DNA of 64,000 nt from Pseudoalteromonas sp. CO133X (GTDB taxonomy: Bacteria; Pseudomonadota; Gammaproteobacteria; Enterobacterales; Alteromonadaceae). The translations under genes and the position numbers were made by a program. Under the pieces are notes generated by a model. It worked only from the letters and a program-made list of their open reading frames with translations, was not told the DNA's origin and did no database searches. The DNA is taken from contig SGPE01000029.1 in the NCBI GenBank assembly GCA_004208945.1, forward strand, positions 62,001 through 126,000. The letters run 5' to 3'. Shown here in pieces: positions 171 through 19,017 of the stretch (within the stretch, counting starts at the first letter, position 1; each line of letters starts with the position of its first letter).

Positions 171-1208
171 TTAAAGTAAGTCAGTTAACAGAATACCCAC
201 ACCAAAGCGTTCAATATCAGCGTTGTAATCAATCAAACTCTCACCATAACCATTAAAGTACTGTGCGTAACCTCGTAACCTGCCCCAAAGAGGGAAAGAC
301 CAATCTAATTGGATTGCACCACGGTTATCTGAATTTAAGTTATTACGAGTCATAAAGCTGAATTCATGTTCGTTATAACGATAAGCGCCAGAAAACTCAA
401 AGTACCCCATGTATTTATAGATATCAGGGTTGTCATCACCACTGGCTTCTAGCTCATCTTCTTTTTCATCTTCTGGGATGCGGTACCAAGGTTTAAAGCT
501 AAACACAAAACCATCTTTTTCCCATAAAAAGTCTGCATAAATGCGATTCCATGAACGAGAATTCGGTTGGCTTCGGCCATTTGATTGATGTGATGCACCA
601 ATCGCAATTGCCATTTCATCTCCCCATAAGACATTTTCTTCATCAAGGTAGTTTATCCAGAATACCTCTGGCTCATAGTTGGTTTCACGAAATGGTGAAG
701 AGATATCTTTGTTGTAAAACTGCCAAAACGACTGCATCGTAAACGCAAAGTACACACCTTGATCTTTATCTGAGAAGCCTTCAAAGATAGGTACCTTAAT
801 TGACAGCTGATATTTTACTTCGAGGTTGTCGAGTGGCTCACCATTTGTTTCTTCTGCTAGATCTTTTAAACCGTCAAAAGGGCGAGTATTTGGATGCGAT
901 ACGTAAGACAGTGGCAGGATATAGTTACGTTTATGTGGCGTGATTACATTGCGGTTTTTTTTACTTACTTCTTCGCGTGCTTTTCGTTTATCAAGTGCTG
1001 TAAGTTTTTTACTTTCATCTAAATCAGAGCATTTTTTTCGAAGCTCTTCGAGCGTTTGTTTACCGTCACCACCAATCGCTTCATTTAAAATACATTGTTT
1101 TACTAATTCGAGCGCGTCATCTTGTTCATTGGTTTTTGTTTCTTCTGTCTGCGCCATAACAGGTACAGAAAATAAACTAGCGACAGCTAGCCACGTGCGC
1201 CATCCCAT
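171..1208 (-). CDS. pldA: Outer membrane phospholipase A (OMPLA)
   Basis: Calcium-dependent phospholipase A1/A2 embedded in the outer membrane, which hydrolyses phospholipids that reach the outer leaflet. The family signature is intact: SHQSNGRS and SRSWNR supply the catalytic His207, Ser209 and Asn221, with the same 2- and 12-residue spacing as the E. coli triad. The C-terminus (GYGESLIDYN...) is also typical of OMPLA and ends in a terminal beta strand. I chose the ATG at 1208 because it gives a signal peptide (MGWRTWLAVASLFSVPVMA) and has AAGGAA upstream; the open frame extends 37 codons further with a poor start. A charged stretch of about 100 residues between the signal peptide and the barrel is longer than in E. 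coli. Confidence 0.93.
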   Translation of the reverse strand: MGWRTWLAVASLFSVPVMAQTEETKTNEQDDALELVKQCILNEAIGGDGKQTLEELRKKCSDLDESKKLTALDKRKAREEVSKKNRNVITPHKRNYILPLSYVSHPNTRPFDGLKDLAEETNGEPLDNLEVKYQLSIKVPIFEGFSDKDQGVYFAFTMQSFWQFYNKDISSPFRETNYEPEVFWINYLDEENVLWGDEMAIAIGASHQSNGRSQPNSRSWNRIYADFLWEKDGFVFSFKPWYRIPEDEKEDELEASGDDNPDIYKYMGYFEFSGAYRYNEHEFSFMTRNNLNSDNRGAIQLDWSFPLWGRLRGYAQYFNGYGESLIDYNADIERFGVGILLTDLL

Positions 1209-1384
1209 TGCGATTTCCTTATTGAATAGAGGTGAAGTTAAGATAAGTATAACGATTTTTACATAAGTAACCGTGAACTTGTACTGAATTGTTAAATTTT
1301 TAGGTAAATAGAGCCCCAAGCGAAACTTGGGACTCTGCTGTTACGGCCTAAGCCGTGACTCTCACGCAATGAGAAGGGGTGAGC

Positions 1385-2503
1385 TTATAGCTCAAATACG
1401 TTGGTAAAAAACTTATATAATTCGGTGCCTTGATTCACGCTTGCTGAAGCAAAATGTAAAATGGCTATTGCATCTTTATCAAAACTGAGTGTTTGTAATG
1501 GTTGTTCTGATAGGTAGCGCTCCATTCTTAAAATATGGGCTATAGGTTCACCTGCTTTAATATGGCCACCCAGTGGCGCTAGGTACTCCACCATGCCGCC
1601 CATGGGAGCGTAGTAAGCAATATAATCTTTAAGCATACAGGCATAACGTGTCATCGCTTTGGGTTGATACGCTGCATCAACTAATACCTTTTTGTGGTTG
1701 AGGTAACTTAAAATGCTATTTGCATCTTCAAGAGCTGCACTTAAATCGATTTTTTCTTGGCTACCTAGCTCAACGGTGAATGCCTCGACTTGGACAGCGA
1801 ATTCACGGCCTTGTTTGCCAAGCTCTTCAGATAACGACCACCATGGACAGAAACTCGCTTCATCCATCGCGCCATCAAAATCATTCGGGATCAATAACAC
1901 ATGCTCTATGTTGAAATAGCGCGCGCTGTCTTTGGCGTATTCAGGGCAATATAAGTGCTGACTTGAGATAGGCCCAGTGTGAAGGTCTAAAACAATATCA
2001 GCCTGATGGGCAAGCTTTTGTAAGTTAAGGGCAATACGCTTACCCGTTGTTAGGCTGTAATCAGGGCCTGTTAGTTGGCTGTCGATATCAGCAACCAGTG
2101 CTTCTTTAAACGCCGCTTTAAGGATCGCATCATCACTGTCTTTGTGCTGTTCAGCAATTTGTGATGGTAAGGCTTTGTTAAAGCGGTACATGCGGTTCCA
2201 GTTGGTGCCCGTAATTGGATCGAAGCGACCTAGCGTAAACTCGCCTGACTTTTGGTTACAACCAATTGGGTTGGCATAAGGCACTAGGGTAATATCGCCA
2301 CGCAGCTTGAGTGATTTTAGCTGCTCTAGCAATTGATAAATTACTGCATTACCTTGCACCTCAGCACCGTGCATATTGGCTTGTATATATACGTTTGGGC
2401 CTGTGCCATCGCCTTTTAAGCGATACACAGGAATTGTCAGTGGTAGGCCGTTGGCAATCTCGCCAACCACAATATTCTCTTGGCTAATGAATTCTTTACT
2501 CAT
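1385..2503 (-). CDS. M14-family succinylglutamate desuccinylase/aspartoacylase-like hydrolase
   Basis: Zinc-dependent amidohydrolase of the AstE/ASPA branch of the M14 carboxypeptidase clan, 372 aa. Visible zinc ligands are His45 and Glu48 (HGAE) and His175 (LDLHTGP); Glu245 (FTVELGS) is the likely catalytic base. The C-terminal part (PMGGMVEYLAPLGGHIKAGE) resembles a small biotinyl/lipoyl-like beta domain seen in some family members. It is the last gene of a tight operon, 5 bases after the LysA-like gene, under a lysine riboswitch. Family members remove N-acyl groups (succinyl, acetyl) from amino acids. The context suggests it removes the succinyl group from N-succinyl-LL-diaminopimelate in place of DapE. 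That role is inference; the family assignment is firm. Confidence 0.85.
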   Translation of the reverse strand: MSKEFISQENIVVGEIANGLPLTIPVYRLKGDGTGPNVYIQANMHGAEVQGNAVIYQLLEQLKSLKLRGDITLVPYANPIGCNQKSGEFTLGRFDPITGTNWNRMYRFNKALPSQIAEQHKDSDDAILKAAFKEALVADIDSQLTGPDYSLTTGKRIALNLQKLAHQADIVLDLHTGPISSQHLYCPEYAKDSARYFNIEHVLLIPNDFDGAMDEASFCPWWSLSEELGKQGREFAVQVEAFTVELGSQEKIDLSAALEDANSILSYLNHKKVLVDAAYQPKAMTRYACMLKDYIAYYAPMGGMVEYLAPLGGHIKAGEPIAHILRMERYLSEQPLQTLSFDKDAIAILHFASASVNQGTELYKFFTNVFEL

Positions 2504-2508
2504 GGCGA

Positions 2509-3714
2509 TTACCTCAAATAATAGCTGGCATCTTCAGCGCTACGAATGCACTCAATATTGCCTTGTTCAAGGATGTATTCAGCCGCTAATTCGTGGCATA
2601 AAAAGTACGGCATACTTTCGGTAAAGCCATATGCCCCACATTGGCTGAATACCAACCAGTCTTGTTCATTTAAATCGCTTGCTAATTGGTGTTCACCCAA
2701 GCAATCAAGGGCGGTGCAAAGCGGGCCGTATAAAGTCATTGCCTTAGGTTCAGCCGTTGATTCGCGTAGTAACGCCGCAGGGAAATCTTGGCTTGTTACA
2801 GCAGGGCGAAGTAAATGGTTAATACCGCCTGATAAAATCACCTGCTGTTGATTGTAATTCTCTTTGCGCTCAACAACCGGTGTTGCGTAATGGCCACATT
2901 CGCCAACCGCATAGCGGCCAAGTTCCATCCAAAGCTCTTTGACACCAGCATCTGCTTTAATGCTCGCCAGTGTCTCGATAAGTGCAGACCAATCAAGTCG
3001 GTTAGCATCTTGGGTATAAGGAATGCCTAAACCACCCCCTAAATCGAGAATATGAAGGTTAATATTTAATGAGCTTGCTAGCTGTTGTAATGGCGCAATC
3101 ATCGCGCGCCATAGCTCGGCGAGTTTGTCAGTGCTCAGCATATTGCCCCATTGGAAAATATGCAGACCCTCAAAGCTAAGAGCTGGGTAATCACTTGCAG
3201 TGAGTGCTTGCCACTCATCACAGCCTAAACCAAAAGGAGTAAGGCTATCGCCGCCAAGTGGATTCTTTTCGCTGTCTGGCCAACGAAGTTGTACACGCAA
3301 TAGAATTTGCAGCTGACAATTTGCTTTTGTTGCTTGCTCATTTAACCAGCGAACTTGGTTAATGCTCTCGGCCACAAAAGTACGTACGCCGCGAGCAATA
3401 AAATGTGAAATTTGTTTAGGGCTTTTTGCAGGCCCTGTGTTGAGCACGCGCTCGCTATCGATGCCTTGAGCAAGTACTTGCTCAAGTTCACCTTTACTTG
3501 CAACATCAAAGTTAAACCCTGCGCTGTCTAAACATTGAATAATGCGTGACAGTGGGTTGGCCTTAACGGCATACCAAAGTTTCACATCGGTTTGCGCAGT
3601 TAGTTGCTTTAAATGTGTAGTTAATTTATCTAAATCATAGATAAAAAATGGCGTATCAAGATGCGTTGAAACGTGTTCAACCGCTTGCTTGATGGGCGTG
3701 CTCAAAAAGCTCAT
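2509..3714 (-). CDS. lysA: PLP-dependent decarboxylase of the diaminopimelate decarboxylase (LysA) family, diverged
   Basis: Fold-type III PLP decarboxylase, 401 aa. Lys51 in WYAVKANP is the Schiff-base lysine. GLHIF, LDLGGGLGIPY (phosphate-binding glycine loop), the catalytic Cys333 in YGPLCTALD and Tyr362 in GAYGF are all present. Two family signatures differ from canonical LysA: EPGR is ELGR (264-267), and the GPICESGD-type Cys loop reads GPLCTALD. The enzyme may therefore be a divergent meso-DAP decarboxylase or act on a related diamino acid. Its position between dapD and the M14 hydrolase under a lysine riboswitch favours the last step of lysine synthesis. Its start overlaps the dapD stop by one base. 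Confidence 0.8.
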   Translation of the reverse strand: MSFLSTPIKQAVEHVSTHLDTPFFIYDLDKLTTHLKQLTAQTDVKLWYAVKANPLSRIIQCLDSAGFNFDVASKGELEQVLAQGIDSERVLNTGPAKSPKQISHFIARGVRTFVAESINQVRWLNEQATKANCQLQILLRVQLRWPDSEKNPLGGDSLTPFGLGCDEWQALTASDYPALSFEGLHIFQWGNMLSTDKLAELWRAMIAPLQQLASSLNINLHILDLGGGLGIPYTQDANRLDWSALIETLASIKADAGVKELWMELGRYAVGECGHYATPVVERKENYNQQQVILSGGINHLLRPAVTSQDFPAALLRESTAEPKAMTLYGPLCTALDCLGEHQLASDLNEQDWLVFSQCGAYGFTESMPYFLCHELAAEYILEQGNIECIRSAEDASYYLR

Positions 3715-4454
3715 TAACGTAAAACCTCTTCTAACAGTAATGATGCATCGCTTTGTTCGTCACGGTATTTTACGATCAGTGCACAAGACATGCTTAGGCC
3801 TTGCTCGCGAGCCCATGCATTTGAAGCTGGGCGAGAACCTGGGATTACAATCGCGTTTTCTGGGATTGCTTCACCTTTATCTAGTTGGCGCTCATTCACA
3901 CAATCGTAAACAGGAATGGTTGCAGATAAGCGCACACCCGGCGCAAGCACAGCCCCTTTTTTCACAACCACACCTTCAACAATAACGCAGCCTGCGCCGA
4001 TGAATGCATCATCTTCAATCACCACAGGACTGGCACCAATTGGCTCAAGTACACCACCTAATTGTACTGCTGCACTTAGGTGAACATTTTTACCCACTTG
4101 TGCACATGACCCTACTAATGCGTGGCTGTCGACCATCGTACCTTCGTCGATGAATGCACCAATATTTACATACGCTGGTGGCATAATAATCGTGCCTTTG
4201 GCAACGTGTGCGCCCCGACGAACACTGCTACCGCCTGGTACCATACGCACGCCTGCATCTGCTGCAAAGCCTTGTGGTGCCAAGTTGTGCTTATCAACAA
4301 AACCACCTGGGAACTCAGTATTTGTGCCATTTTTGAAAGCTTCTAAAATGCCTTGTTTAACTTCTACATTGGCGTGCCAGTTGCCGTTCTCGTCTTGTGT
4401 TGCTGCGCGAACTGCGCCTGATTCTAAGTTGTTTAATAATTCTAACCAGCTCAT
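3714..4454 (-). CDS. dapD: 2,3,4,5-tetrahydropyridine-2,6-dicarboxylate N-succinyltransferase
   Basis: Succinylates tetrahydrodipicolinate in the succinylase branch of DAP/lysine synthesis; a left-handed beta-helix trimer in the family. Diagnostic stretches are MPPAYVNIGAFIDEGTMVD, VGSCAQVGKNVHLS and GGVLEPIGASPVVIEDD, with a C-terminal extension ending in EEVLR. From the ATG at 4454 (MSWLEL) the protein is 246 aa, about 28 shorter than E. coli DapD, mostly at the N-terminus. The open frame reaches 4478 inside dapA, but the inner ATG fits the family start better. A short DapD like this may be a second paralogue; the canonical copy could lie elsewhere in the genome. Confidence 0.9.
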   Translation of the reverse strand: MSWLELLNNLESGAVRAATQDENGNWHANVEVKQGILEAFKNGTNTEFPGGFVDKHNLAPQGFAADAGVRMVPGGSSVRRGAHVAKGTIIMPPAYVNIGAFIDEGTMVDSHALVGSCAQVGKNVHLSAAVQLGGVLEPIGASPVVIEDDAFIGAGCVIVEGVVVKKGAVLAPGVRLSATIPVYDCVNERQLDKGEAIPENAIVIPGSRPASNAWAREQGLSMSCALIVKYRDEQSDASLLLEEVLR

Positions 4455-4468
4455 GATAAAACCTGTTT

Positions 4469-5353
4469 TTAGTTCCAAGATAAAATTGTGTTGTTTGCGT
4501 GGGTGATGCTGTCTGTTTGCTCAAGCTCTAAATGCGTAAGCGGCGGACGTAAATGCGGGGTATTTATTTTACCTTGCAGGTGCATCAGTACTTTTACGGG
4601 GATTGGATTTGCTACAGCGAATAAACTTTGGATTGCTTGCGACCAATCGGTGAATAGATTTGGGTATTGACCACTTAAACTGCGTTTAACAAACTCATGG
4701 GTTTGACTCGGCCAAGCATTCGCGGCAACCGACACTAAACCTTTTGCACCAGCTTGAGCAAAATATGGCATAAGTGCATCATCGCCACTGAAAATAGCCA
4801 GAGTTGGTGATGCCGTTCTAAAACCTTCAAATTTACTAATGTCGCCACTGGCTTCTTTTAAAGCCCAAAGGTTTTTGTGCTCAGCAAGGTTTTTGATCAC
4901 CTGCGGTGCAATCTCAACTGCACTTCTTCCTGGTACGTTATACAACATACAAGGGTGATGACTTGCGTTAAGTAGGCTTTCAAACCAATGTGTTTGGCCA
5001 ACAACCCCTGGCTTTGCATACAGAGGTGAGCCCAATAGATAGCCATGAATAGGTAGTTGATTGCAGTATTCAACCCAAGCAATTTGTTGCTTAAGGTTCA
5101 TACCGCCCACAGCAACCATGAGTGGTACTCTCGGTGCTAATTGGCAAACATGCTCAACAATGGCTTGTTGCTCTTTAAGTGAAAGCGCCAGTCCTTCACC
5201 GGTACTGCCAAGCAATAAAATGCCGTTATTTGCATCTTGCTGCTCAGCGACCAGTTGTTCAAGGGCCGTGTAATCGACCTCGCCAGATTCAGAAAATGGC
5301 GTGACAAGCGCTGTCCATAATGGATAGTCGTTTAAATCAAAATTGTTGATCAT
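4469..5353 (-). CDS. dapA: 4-hydroxy-tetrahydrodipicolinate synthase (DapA)
   Basis: Condenses pyruvate with aspartate semialdehyde, the committed step to DAP and lysine. It has the class I aldolase barrel motifs: GSTGEG (49-54), Tyr138 in YNVPGR and the Schiff-base Lys166 in ALKEASG. At 294 aa it has normal family length. It is the first gene of the four-gene operon and begins about 140 bases after the lysine riboswitch aptamer. DapA-family lyases also include N-acetylneuraminate and other lyases, but the Tyr/Arg triad and the riboswitch support DHDPS. Confidence 0.92.
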   Translation of the reverse strand: MINNFDLNDYPLWTALVTPFSESGEVDYTALEQLVAEQQDANNGILLLGSTGEGLALSLKEQQAIVEHVCQLAPRVPLMVAVGGMNLKQQIAWVEYCNQLPIHGYLLGSPLYAKPGVVGQTHWFESLLNASHHPCMLYNVPGRSAVEIAPQVIKNLAEHKNLWALKEASGDISKFEGFRTASPTLAIFSGDDALMPYFAQAGAKGLVSVAANAWPSQTHEFVKRSLSGQYPNLFTDWSQAIQSLFAVANPIPVKVLMHLQGKINTPHLRPPLTHLELEQTDSITHANNTILSWN

Positions 5354-5456
5354 CTCTCACGAACTTATAAGGTATTCGAAGAGTTTATGCGGGAACATTT
5401 GAATGGAGCCGCATGTCGTCGTTCGAACAAGGTATAATTCGAAGAGCGAATGGGCT

Positions 5457-5487
5457 TAAAATAATAAAGACGCGACGGCCTTATTAT
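5457..5487 (-). terminator. Probable expression-platform terminator of the lysine riboswitch
   Basis: On the minus strand, ATAATAAGGCCG and CGTCTTTATTAT form an imperfect hairpin ending in a TTTT run, a few bases after the aptamer. It is placed where a ligand-controlled terminator would be. The alternative antiterminator pairing was not worked out. The 513 bases between dapA and the glycosylase gene hold this platform, the aptamer and the divergent promoters. Confidence 0.55.
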
Positions 5488-5492
5488 ACTAA

Positions 5493-5686
5493 GACCAGAA
5501 GCTCTCCACCAAACTAATCAATAGCAATTTGCTATTGTTGGTGACAGTCGCTGGGATTCAGCCCAGTCGCCCGAAATAAGCACCTCACAAACGGTGTTAC
5601 TTCTCGGCGTTAATTCCCCTCACGTATGATCAACAGAGTCTGTGCTCTTCCCATACGCTACCTGAATAACGCACCTCTTCCAGCCC
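5493..5686 (-). promoter_or_regulatory. Lysine riboswitch (L box) aptamer
   Basis: Read on the minus strand, the element starts GCTGGAAGAGGTGCG, continues with CGCCGAGAAGTAACACC and GGGCTGAATCCCAG, then CTGTCACC, and closes with GGTGGAGAGCTTCTGG. These are the conserved junction blocks of the lysine riboswitch and match the E. coli lysC leader in order and spacing. The ends pair as P1 (CUGGAAG with CUUCUGG, with wobble pairs). The aptamer is about 194 nt and lies directly upstream of dapA, so lysine should repress the whole dapA-dapD-lysA-like-M14 operon. Confidence 0.95.
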
Positions 5687-5867
5687 TTTATGCTCGCTTT
5701 AAAGGTTAAAGCCAACATAGTTAAATAGGGTATATTCGGCGATTAAAGCATTTTAGCCATCTAGGTGTCAAGGCGAAGGATTTGTTTTTTAGTGACCGAT
5801 TTTGCAACATGGTTACGTATAAGCGTGTTTTTACGTACACTTAGCGTTAACCAAATAAATTGGAAAA

Positions 5868-6566
5868 ATGATGGAAAAATTTAACGATATTTATCGACGA
5901 GCCGTATCTCGAAAGGGCAGCGAGGAAATGCTGCATGCACTGTTATCAAACCCGCTCGATGATACTGATATTGCCAAAATGCATGACGATTTATGGTTAG
6001 AAGAGTTCACGCGTAAAGTTTTTCAAAGTGGCTTCTATTGGTCTGTTATCAATAACAAGTGGGCAGGTTTTCGCGACGTGTTTTGGGATTTCAGTGTAGA
6101 GAAACTGCTGATGATGCCGCCAGATATGCTTGAGCAAAAAGCCAGTGACGAGCGAATTGTTCGTAATTTTAAAAAAGTACAAACGATCCCAGAAAACGCA
6201 TACATGATCCACGAAGTTGCCGAAAAACATGGCAGCTTTAGCCAGTTTATTGCGGATTGGCCAACTGACAATATTATTGGCTTGTGGGCCTATCTTAAAA
6301 AACATGGTGCGCGTTTAGGGGGAAATACAGGCCCTTACGCTTTGCGAGCGCTTGGTAAAGATACCTTTTTACTTTCTCGCGATGTAGAAACCTACTTGCG
6401 TGCCCACGAGTTGATAGAGGGCGGCTTACAAACTAAAAAATCGTTACAAGCAGCACAAGATTTTTTCAATGAATTACAACAGCAAAGTGGCTATAGCCTG
6501 CAAGCACTTAGTCAGCTTGTGGCCTATGGGGTAGGTGATAACCGCGTAGGTGTAGCCACACGTTAA
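5868..6566 (+). CDS. DNA-3-methyladenine glycosylase I-like protein
   Basis: Helix-hairpin-helix superfamily DNA glycosylase resembling Tag, 232 aa. Family-like blocks are FQSGFYWSVINNKWAGFRDVFWDF (Tag has QAGLSW...FR..F), a central AHELI-type helix and SRDVETYLRA near the position of the catalytic region. The N-terminal Tag zinc ligands are not evident, so it belongs to the shorter Tag-like branch, and base specificity cannot be read off. It starts at one of two adjacent ATG codons (5868 or 5871). It ends 8 bases before selO, probably co-transcribed. Confidence 0.75.
   Translation: MMEKFNDIYRRAVSRKGSEEMLHALLSNPLDDTDIAKMHDDLWLEEFTRKVFQSGFYWSVINNKWAGFRDVFWDFSVEKLLMMPPDMLEQKASDERIVRNFKKVQTIPENAYMIHEVAEKHGSFSQFIADWPTDNIIGLWAYLKKHGARLGGNTGPYALRALGKDTFLLSRDVETYLRAHELIEGGLQTKKSLQAAQDFFNELQQQSGYSLQALSQLVAYGVGDNRVGVATR

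Positions 6567-17441: not shown

Positions 17442-19017
<1,576 letters not shown>

What the first reader, a model, noticed from the sequence alone, without database searches (positions are those of the whole stretch)
1385..5686. Lysine-riboswitch operon with an AstE/aspartoacylase-like enzyme where DapE would be expected
The operon dapA-dapD-LysA-like-M14 hydrolase is tightly packed and sits behind an unmistakable lysine riboswitch. The succinylase route needs N-succinyl-LL-DAP desuccinylase, normally DapE (M20 family). Here the only hydrolase in the operon is an M14-clan N-acyl amino acid deacylase with intact zinc and catalytic residues. It may be a non-homologous replacement for DapE. The aminotransferase step could come from AstC at 17.8 kb.
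Basis: partly seen in the sequence, partly recalled or inferred. Interest (0 to 1): 0.75.

Follow-up and report, generated by a model that had tools for sequence, protein, structure and literature searches.

The report
Riboswitch operon for alternative lysine synthesis
A marine bacterium carries, next to the usual lysine pathway, a second lysine-controlled gene set with an unusual decarboxylase and an unrelated deacylase, which may make lysine by a shortcut that skips one or two standard steps.

Summary
In detail: a lysine riboswitch (94 bits) drives dapA2-dapD2-lysA2-M14, tightly packed. The premise 'DapE is missing' is wrong: the genome also has canonical dapE, dapD, lysA-dapF, a second dapA, argE and astE. 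The operon is an extra, conserved set: dapD2-lysA2-M14 lie together in 78 of 80 fetched loci (Pseudoalteromonas, Thalassotalea, Colwellia, Litorilituus, one Bacteriovoracaceae MAG), 77 of them behind a lysine riboswitch. In Bacteriovoracales, where 0 of 129 genomes show proteobacterial DapE, M14 occurs in 54, with lysA2 beside it in 44. LysA2 is not ordinary LysA: 107 of 107 have Thr where LysA's Glu holds the far amino group, yet keep both far-carboxylate arginines. My bold reading (0.45): LysA2 decarboxylates N-succinyl-LL-DAP and M14 frees lysine last, bypassing DapE and DapF. The rival (0.37), M14 as a DapE-like desuccinylase, gained from a late check: 4 Bacteriovoracales operons have dapD2-M14 without lysA2, and Shewanella-like genomes have riboswitch-lysC-M14. 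No activity has been measured.

The parts
5491..5687 (-). Lysine riboswitch aptamer (RF00168)
   Evidence: 94.4 bits, E 1.1e-23, full model 1-182
5354..5490 (-). Leader between aptamer and dapA2; strongly folded, its last helix pairs the GUGAGAG just before the dapA2 ATG; translational control is a guess
   Evidence: fold of 5354-5500: -40.8 kcal/mol, z -4.62, 0 of 200 shuffles as stable; terminator-like sites in 1200-5900: 2 found, 5.4 expected, one of them inside the aptamer
4469..5353 (-). dapA2, 4-hydroxy-tetrahydrodipicolinate synthase
   Evidence: TIGR00674 270.1 bits, cut-off 206.15; 28% identical over 270 aa to the second DapA of the genome
3714..4454 (-). dapD2, short tetrahydrodipicolinate N-succinyltransferase paralogue (246 aa)
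   Evidence: NF008808 293.9, cut-off 204; TIGR00965 182.7, below 375.4; 44% identical to the genome's canonical DapD, sharing D109, S127 and E160 (catalytic roles recalled)
2509..3714 (-). lysA2, PLP decarboxylase of the LysA/BtrK kind; proposed N-succinyl-LL-diaminopimelate decarboxylase
   Evidence: TIGR01048 201.5, below 297.9; best PDB relative BtrK, 134 bits; 30% identical to own canonical LysA; T334, F187, R267 and R303 in 107 of 107
1385..2503 (-). M14-type zinc deacylase (AstE/AspA fold); proposed desuccinylase of N2-succinyl-L-lysine and/or N-succinyl-LL-DAP
   Evidence: PF24827 98.1 bits; PDB 3fmc 449 and 3lwu 442 bits, then 8ein/8eip 93/91
17812..19017 (+). AstC/ArgD-type aminotransferase; candidate for the unlinked N-succinyl-DAP aminotransferase step
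   Evidence: NF003468 736.9 bits, cut-off 522

Best explanation
A lysine-repressible second branch of lysine synthesis that stays acylated to the end. DapA2 and the cell's DapB make tetrahydrodipicolinate; DapD2 succinylates it; an ArgD/AstC/DapC-type aminotransferase gives N-succinyl-LL-DAP (standard chemistry, assigned by homology). LysA2 decarboxylates the free amino-acid end while the other amine is still succinylated, giving N2-succinyl-L-lysine (inferred). M14 hydrolyses the succinyl amide and frees L-lysine (inferred); in the few operons without lysA2 it would have to take N-succinyl-LL-DAP itself, so I assume that it reads the succinyl half and tolerates both. DapE, DapF and free DAP are bypassed, so the riboswitch can shut lysine output without touching the canonical route that supplies cell-wall DAP. 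Shown: gene set, riboswitch, conservation, active-site substitutions, presence of the canonical route. Inferred: substrates of LysA2 and M14, the succinyl (rather than acetyl) cap, the aminotransferase.
For: (1) LysA2: 107 of 107 have Thr at the position of LysA's Glu but keep both arginines. In T. maritima LysA, Arg249 and Arg285 hold the far carboxylate and Glu315 the far amine; E315T falls from 675 to 26 mU/mg on DAP (PMC8277567 passages). That fits a substrate whose far amine is capped. (2) LysA2 is its own clade (100/99; joins to outgroups unsure); its closest solved relatives are BtrK, then 6knh (recalled as SbnH-like), both with CT in place of CE. BtrK, FigC and SbnH decarboxylate conjugated L-amino acids (PMC7857480 passages). 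[quoted passage not shown] beta-Asp-Lys is N2-succinyl-lysine plus one amino group. (4) The genome has a full canonical set besides. (5) No DapF match lies in any of the 54 Bacteriovoracales M14 stretches (20, 34); 5 carriers have an aminotransferase directly after M14. (6) Of 44 carriers with lysA2 beside M14, 5 of 14 without canonical LysA also lack a DapF hit, against 2 of 29 with it (p 0.028; one contig-edge case, G058, left out). This supports a DapF bypass, not M14's substrate.
Against: Four Bacteriovoracales operons run lysC-dapB-dapA-dapD2-M14 (in L195 only dapA-dapD2-M14 is on the contig) with no lysA2 (L195, L200, L208, L215); three of these genomes have only a canonical LysA, one has no LysA-type match at 1e-30, so M14 there cannot be serving LysA2. 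They fall in two separate places among lysA2-linked M14s. Shewanella-like genomes have lysC-M14 without dapD2/lysA2 next door (4 of 20 regions, plus L179 by coordinates), with a lysine riboswitch in 2 of 2 tested. A clade of eight lysA2 operons is in genomes without M14 at 1e-20; in the four whose next gene I scanned it was a papain-type protease, an HD protein, a PilZ protein or nothing known. Most M14 carriers still have DapF (45 of 54) and a LysA over cut-off (36 of 54). E315T of T. maritima LysA mainly gained activity on 2-aminopimelate, so Thr shows loss of amine recognition, not a cap. MAGs may be incomplete. 8ein/8eip were not shown by a call to be the dipeptide hydrolases (paper not held). 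Stereochemistry (LysA acts on a D-centre; this needs an L-centre) is untested.
Confidence: 0.45

Rival explanations
1. M14 is a zinc desuccinylase of N-succinyl-LL-DAP everywhere: a non-homologous DapE, a stand-in in Bacteriovoracales and an extra, lysine-controlled one in Gammaproteobacteria. LysA2 then acts on free DAP, meso or perhaps LL.
For: dapD2-M14 without lysA2 in 4 Bacteriovoracales operons; riboswitch-lysC-M14 in Shewanella-like genomes; 0 of 129 Bacteriovoracales with TIGR01246 DapE at 1e-40 and 0 of 129 with TIGR03542 DapL at 1e-60; DapF in 45 of 54 carriers. One M14 function covers all contexts seen.
Against: 75 of 129 genomes of the order have neither M14 nor DapE at these thresholds, so some other desuccinylase must exist there; LysA2's Glu-to-Thr change, made in T. 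maritima LysA, costs about 96% of its DAP activity; DapE is present in 23 of 24 tested genomes with the block, so a second one needs explaining; nearest relatives probably prefer Lys/Arg. In 3 of the 4 lysA2-less operons a Gly conserved in 55 of 58 linked M14s is Gln (found post hoc), which could mean a shifted specificity.
Confidence: 0.37
2. The operon makes a special metabolite from the lysine pathway, as the LysA-like TabA and DapD-like TabB do in tabtoxin synthesis.
For: TabA/TabB/TabD are the same kinds of protein and tabA could not complement an E. coli lysA mutant (PMC3927611 passages).
Against: Lysine riboswitch in 77 of 78 loci; linkage to lysC-dapB-dapA in Bacteriovoracales; the window's neighbours are a phospholipase, a glycosylase-like protein and SelO; 15 Bacteriovoracales with lysA2-M14 have no LysA over cut-off.
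Confidence: 0.06
3. M14 is a scavenging enzyme that frees lysine from beta-Asp-Lys or other N2-acyl-lysines, riding in lysine-controlled operons for supply rather than synthesis.
For: Closeness to 8ein/8eip and the described beta-Asp-Lys/Arg specificity of that kind of enzyme; would explain lysC-M14.
Against: Does not explain linkage to dapD2 (78 of 80 loci; 47 of 54 Bacteriovoracales carriers). Cyanophycin genes were not searched for.
Confidence: 0.07

Closest known systems
Succinylase branch of DAP/lysine synthesis (DapD-DapC-DapE-DapF-LysA)
   Same: DapA and DapD kinds of enzyme, probably succinylated intermediates, a LysA-fold decarboxylase, lysine riboswitch
   Different: The deacylase is M14-type, not M20 DapE; LysA2 lacks the Glu that binds the free far amine; proposed order is decarboxylation before deacylation, no DapF step
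BtrK / FigC / SbnH decarboxylases
   Same: LysA-like fold; CT in place of CE in BtrK and 6knh; substrates with the far end conjugated
   Different: LysA2 keeps LysA's arginine R303 for a far carboxylate; proposed substrate is N-succinyl-LL-DAP
Cyanophycin dipeptide hydrolases (probably PDB 8ein/8eip)
   Same: AstE/AspA-type domain; shared GRFD..TGTN.NR.Y and DEA...PW motifs
   Different: Only about 93 bits; M14 lies in lysine-gene operons; proposed substrate lacks the amino group of the aspartyl half
Riboswitch operon dapA-dapD-lysA-hypothetical1-hypothetical2 of P. haloplanktis and lysC-dapB-dapA-dapD-lysA of Bacteriovorax marinus (PMC5584792, Table 1)
   Same: Very probably the same operons
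   Different: There the M14 gene is 'hypothetical' or not listed; no special role proposed in the passages read
AstE, succinylglutamate desuccinylase
   Same: Broad catalytic superfamily
   Different: Own genome has a true AstE on another contig (368 bits, cut-off 306); BLASTP between it and M14 is not significant (E 0.16)

Membership tests
Lysine riboswitch RF00168 | covariance-model match over gathering score, full length | tested here: met
   94.4 vs 30, positions 1-182 of 182
DapA | TIGR00674 over cut-off | tested here: met
   270.1 vs 206.15
DapD (canonical TIGR00965) | model over cut-off | tested here: not met
   182.7 vs 375.4; the wider NF008808 is met, 293.9 vs 204
LysA, diaminopimelate decarboxylase | TIGR01048 over cut-off | tested here: not met
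   201.5 vs 297.9; own canonical LysA 543.8
LysA, diaminopimelate decarboxylase | Glu that binds the far amino group (Glu315 of T. maritima LysA) | tested here: not met
   Thr in 107 of 107; Glu in both canonical LysA rows
LysA, diaminopimelate decarboxylase | two Arg that bind the far carboxylate | tested here: met
   R267 and R303 in 107 of 107
BtrK/FigC/SbnH conjugate decarboxylases | activity on a conjugated L-amino acid | not testable with these tools
   sequence nearness and CT motif only
DapE (M20) | match to an M20/DapE family model | tested here: not met
   no M20 family among the matches of M14 at 1e-3; a DapE-like activity is a separate question, untested
AstE TIGR03242 | model match | tested here: not met
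   no match at 1e-3
DoeB TIGR02994 | model over cut-off | tested here: not met
   36.7 vs 402.7
Cyanophycin dipeptide hydrolase | hydrolysis of beta-Asp-Arg/Lys; specificity residues | not tested
   paper not held

The most novel reading that the evidence does not exclude
An undescribed route to lysine through N-succinyl-LL-DAP and N2-succinyl-L-lysine that bypasses DapE, DapF and free DAP, present in marine Gammaproteobacteria beside the canonical route and, in some Bacteriovoracales, perhaps the only route to lysine; it separates lysine control from cell-wall supply.
Probability: 0.42. Interest if true: 0.85.

Novelty: new variant of a known kind. Interest (0 to 1): 0.6.

Why it matters
Lysine synthesis is textbook biochemistry and DapE/DapF are antibacterial targets (recalled). 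A branch that reaches lysine without free DAP would show how cells uncouple an amino acid from the peptidoglycan precursor it is normally made from. Even the rival reading would give a non-homologous DapE for an order in which no proteobacterial DapE was found. Either way 'lysA' labels on this clade are misleading, an orphan pair of solved structures (3fmc, 3lwu) gets a likely pathway, and genes printed as hypothetical get a function. Three proteins and two synthetic substrates suffice to decide.

Tried and rejected
Rejected: 'dapE is missing from the organism'. Rejected: M14 is AstE of the arginine pathway; the genome has a separate AstE. Not usable by itself as a test of M14 = DapE: absence of DapE in Bacteriovoracales, since the 75 genomes without M14 lack it too. 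Weak: DapF/LysA co-loss. First count over all 54 carriers: 6 of 18 without canonical LysA lack DapF, against 3 of 36 (p 0.047); in the 75 genomes without M14 the figures are 1 of 17 and 9 of 58. Three of the 18 (G066, G083, G094) had no LysA-type match at 1e-30 and one (G058) has a contig-edge LysA piece besides its lysA2, hence the recount. Odds changed on re-checking: searches showed M14 operons without lysA2, and the capped route went from 0.55 to 0.45, its rival from 0.25 to 0.37. Paper searches: (succinyl-lysine routes) found 0 papers; one search listed 1 paper, not opened; one search listed 5, of which I read passages of two (PMC7311316, which reports DapE gaps in other bacteria; PMC10206079). 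Protein searches show only the best 120 of 1865 and of 1218 hits, where named nearly all Pseudoalteromonas, Thalassotalea, Thalassomonas or Colwellia. Dropped rows: L155 and L157 were left out of the LysA2 count as another family (27-28% identity); L094 and L096 hold no full-length block.
Full report
What is there. The window lies in a 4.44 Mb genome whose nearest named relatives are Pseudoalteromonas arabiensis, P. shioyasakiensis and kin (M14 96-97% identical). On the minus strand a lysine riboswitch (5491-5687, 94.4 bits) precedes dapA2 (4469-5353), dapD2 (3714-4454), lysA2 (2509-3714) and an M14-type deacylase (1385-2503). The stretch from the aptamer's end to the start codon is strongly folded (z -4.62), and the terminator scan gave fewer sites than shuffles, so control at translation is my guess.

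The premise fails. The same genome has a canonical DapE (558 bits) and a second DapE-like protein (371, cut-off 362), a canonical DapD (484), a canonical LysA (544) with dapF next to it (read; as a BLAST query it matches two stretches that PF01678 had found), a second DapA (222, cut-off 206), an ArgE (597, cut-off 460) and a true AstE (368, cut-off 306). dapB was not searched. The operon is therefore a second set.

Conservation. A scan with the M14 protein kept the best 80 of 82 loci in GTDB species genomes, mostly close relatives of the window. dapD2, lysA2 and M14 all lie together in 78 of 80, 64 with dapA2 as well; L094 and L096 lack part of the block. A riboswitch text pattern (no chance level computed) was found upstream in 66 of the 78; 5 of these were also tested with Rfam and matched. 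Rfam found it in 11 of the 12 that the pattern missed (2, 9); L087 had none. So 77 of 78, 61 of them by pattern only. The constant core is riboswitch, dapD2, lysA2, M14; dapA2 is optional.

Bacteriovoracales. One locus (L098) is a Bacteriovoracaceae MAG with lysC-dapB-dapA-dapD-lysA-M14 and asd alongside. Of 129 genomes of its order M14 occurs in 54 at 1e-20. I have now looked at the surroundings of all 54: L098, 20 regions picked by me and the other 33. lysA2 lies upstream of M14 in 44 (dapD2 also visible in 43; in G051 the contig ends). In 4 (G064, G065, G066, G102) dapD2 is followed by M14 with no lysA2. In 3 (G083, G084, G145) no lysine gene was recognised near M14, and in 3 (G094, G136, G137) the contig ends just upstream. 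In the first 20, M14 directly follows lysA2 in 16 and lies 2.7-4.3 kb off in 4. Five carriers have an aminotransferase directly after M14 (L133, L134, L136, L138, L193), PF00155, no named family over cut-off in the two scanned. Nine of nine order regions tested have the lysine riboswitch, including one without M14. None of 129 has TIGR01246 DapE at 1e-40 or TIGR03542 DapL at 1e-60; the DapE-like protein of L098's genome is an ArgE. Eight lysA2 operons that form one clade are in genomes without M14 at 1e-20.

Other M14 carriers. In the window's own order 65 of 394 genomes have M14 at 1e-50. Of 20 regions picked and fetched: 4 have dapD2-lysA2-M14 (one, L190, has the same M14 protein as L063); 4 have lysC-M14 only, and a fifth, L179, by coordinates; 11 have M14 with no lysine gene recognised beside it. 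Rfam found the riboswitch in 3 of 11 regions tested: L173 and L175 (lysC-M14) and L180 (full set). The lysC-M14 group is Shewanella-like: its M14 scores 687 bits to 3fmc, which I recall as a Shewanella structure.

LysA2. Best NCBIfam model TIGR03099 (209, below cut-off), LysA TIGR01048 below cut-off; best PDB relatives BtrK (134 bits), 6knh (115), LysA 2p3e (113), whereas the genome's canonical LysA scores 601 to a solved LysA. In an alignment of 107 LysA2 (window, 78 from the 80-locus set, 28 Bacteriovoracales; two other-family rows dropped) Lys51, Cys333, Arg267 and Arg303 are invariant, while LysA's Glu is Thr334 and the His that stacks on the cofactor is Phe187 in 107 of 107; both canonical rows have Glu and His. 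In T. maritima LysA, Arg249/Arg285 bind the far carboxylate, Glu315 the far amine, His179 stacks on PLP; E315T falls from 675 to 26 mU/mg on DAP and becomes mainly a 2-aminopimelate decarboxylase (PMC8277567, passages). BtrK and 6knh also carry CT. PMC7857480 (passages) places FigC, SbnH and BtrK, which act on conjugated amino acids, with LysA in one clade. My tree puts LysA2 in one clade, 100/99, with unsure outgroup joins.

M14. Candidate catalytic residues are intact. The closest solved proteins after 3fmc and 3lwu are 8ein and 8eip. [quoted passage not shown] that 8ein/8eip are these enzymes is my inference. Beta-Asp-Lys differs from N2-succinyl-L-lysine by one amino group.

Weighing. The capped-to-the-end route explains the Thr, the retained arginines, the kinship of M14 and the coexistence with a canonical route. 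It also fits the five Bacteriovoracales with lysA2-M14 but neither a LysA over cut-off nor a DapF hit: 5 of 14 against 2 of 29 with canonical LysA (p 0.028), although incomplete MAGs weaken this and an LL-DAP decarboxylase would fit as well. Against it stand the 4 dapD2-M14 operons without lysA2, lysC-M14 in Shewanella-like genomes, and lysA2 without M14. A DapE-like M14 explains all M14 contexts with one function but leaves LysA2's changed pocket, and the redundancy with DapE in Gammaproteobacteria, unexplained. In 3 of the 4 lysA2-less operons a Gly conserved in 55 of 58 linked M14s is Gln, a post hoc hint of shifted specificity. I keep the capped route slightly ahead.

What is in print. PMC5584792 (passages) lists a Pseudoalteromonas riboswitch operon dapA-dapD-lysA-hypothetical-hypothetical and a Bacteriovorax marinus operon lysC-dapB-dapA-dapD-lysA. 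Searches for a succinyl-lysine route returned no paper; the library lacks most subscription journals.

Noticed in passing
L195, L200, L208, L215: Bacteriovoracales operons with dapD2 followed by M14 and no lysA2; two separate lineages in a quick M14 tree.
   Followed up: partly
L173-L176, L179: Shewanella-like genomes place M14 directly after an aspartokinase gene (lysine-sensitive type in L174; riboswitch found in L173 and L175), with no dapD2/lysA2 beside it; role unexplained.
   Followed up: partly
L133, L134, L136, L138, L193, just after M14: Class I/II aminotransferase (best NCBIfam model GntC, far below cut-off, in the two scanned), candidate for the N-acyl-DAP aminotransferase.
   Followed up: partly
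order of G001 (129 genomes): No TIGR01246 DapE at 1e-40 and no TIGR03542 DapL at 1e-60 in any, though 110 have DapF and 94 a LysA over cut-off; how these bacteria make DAP is unclear.
   Followed up: partly
L153, L154, L156, L161, L162, L169-L171: A clade keeps dapD2-lysA2 operons while its genomes gave no M14 at 1e-20; the deacylase, if any, is unknown.
   Followed up: partly
L003 (G000 C48:197651-198760): Second DapE-like protein in the own genome, just over the DapE cut-off (371 vs 362 bits); second copies over or near cut-off in several relatives.
   Followed up: no
L012 (G000 C11:756666-757778): Third LysA-like protein with GPTCDSID, the Asp that ornithine-type decarboxylases have at this place.
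   Followed up: no
window 5868-6566: Divergent 3-methyladenine glycosylase-like protein (PF03352 55 bits, TIGR00624 35 vs cut-off 233) next to a SelO gene.
   Followed up: no
L083 14110-16167: Group II intron matches in a Colwellia locus.
   Followed up: no
L064 7130-8229 and L089 5927-6674: M14 (L064) and dapD2 (L089) each match in two pieces, so the gene is split in that assembly.
   Followed up: no
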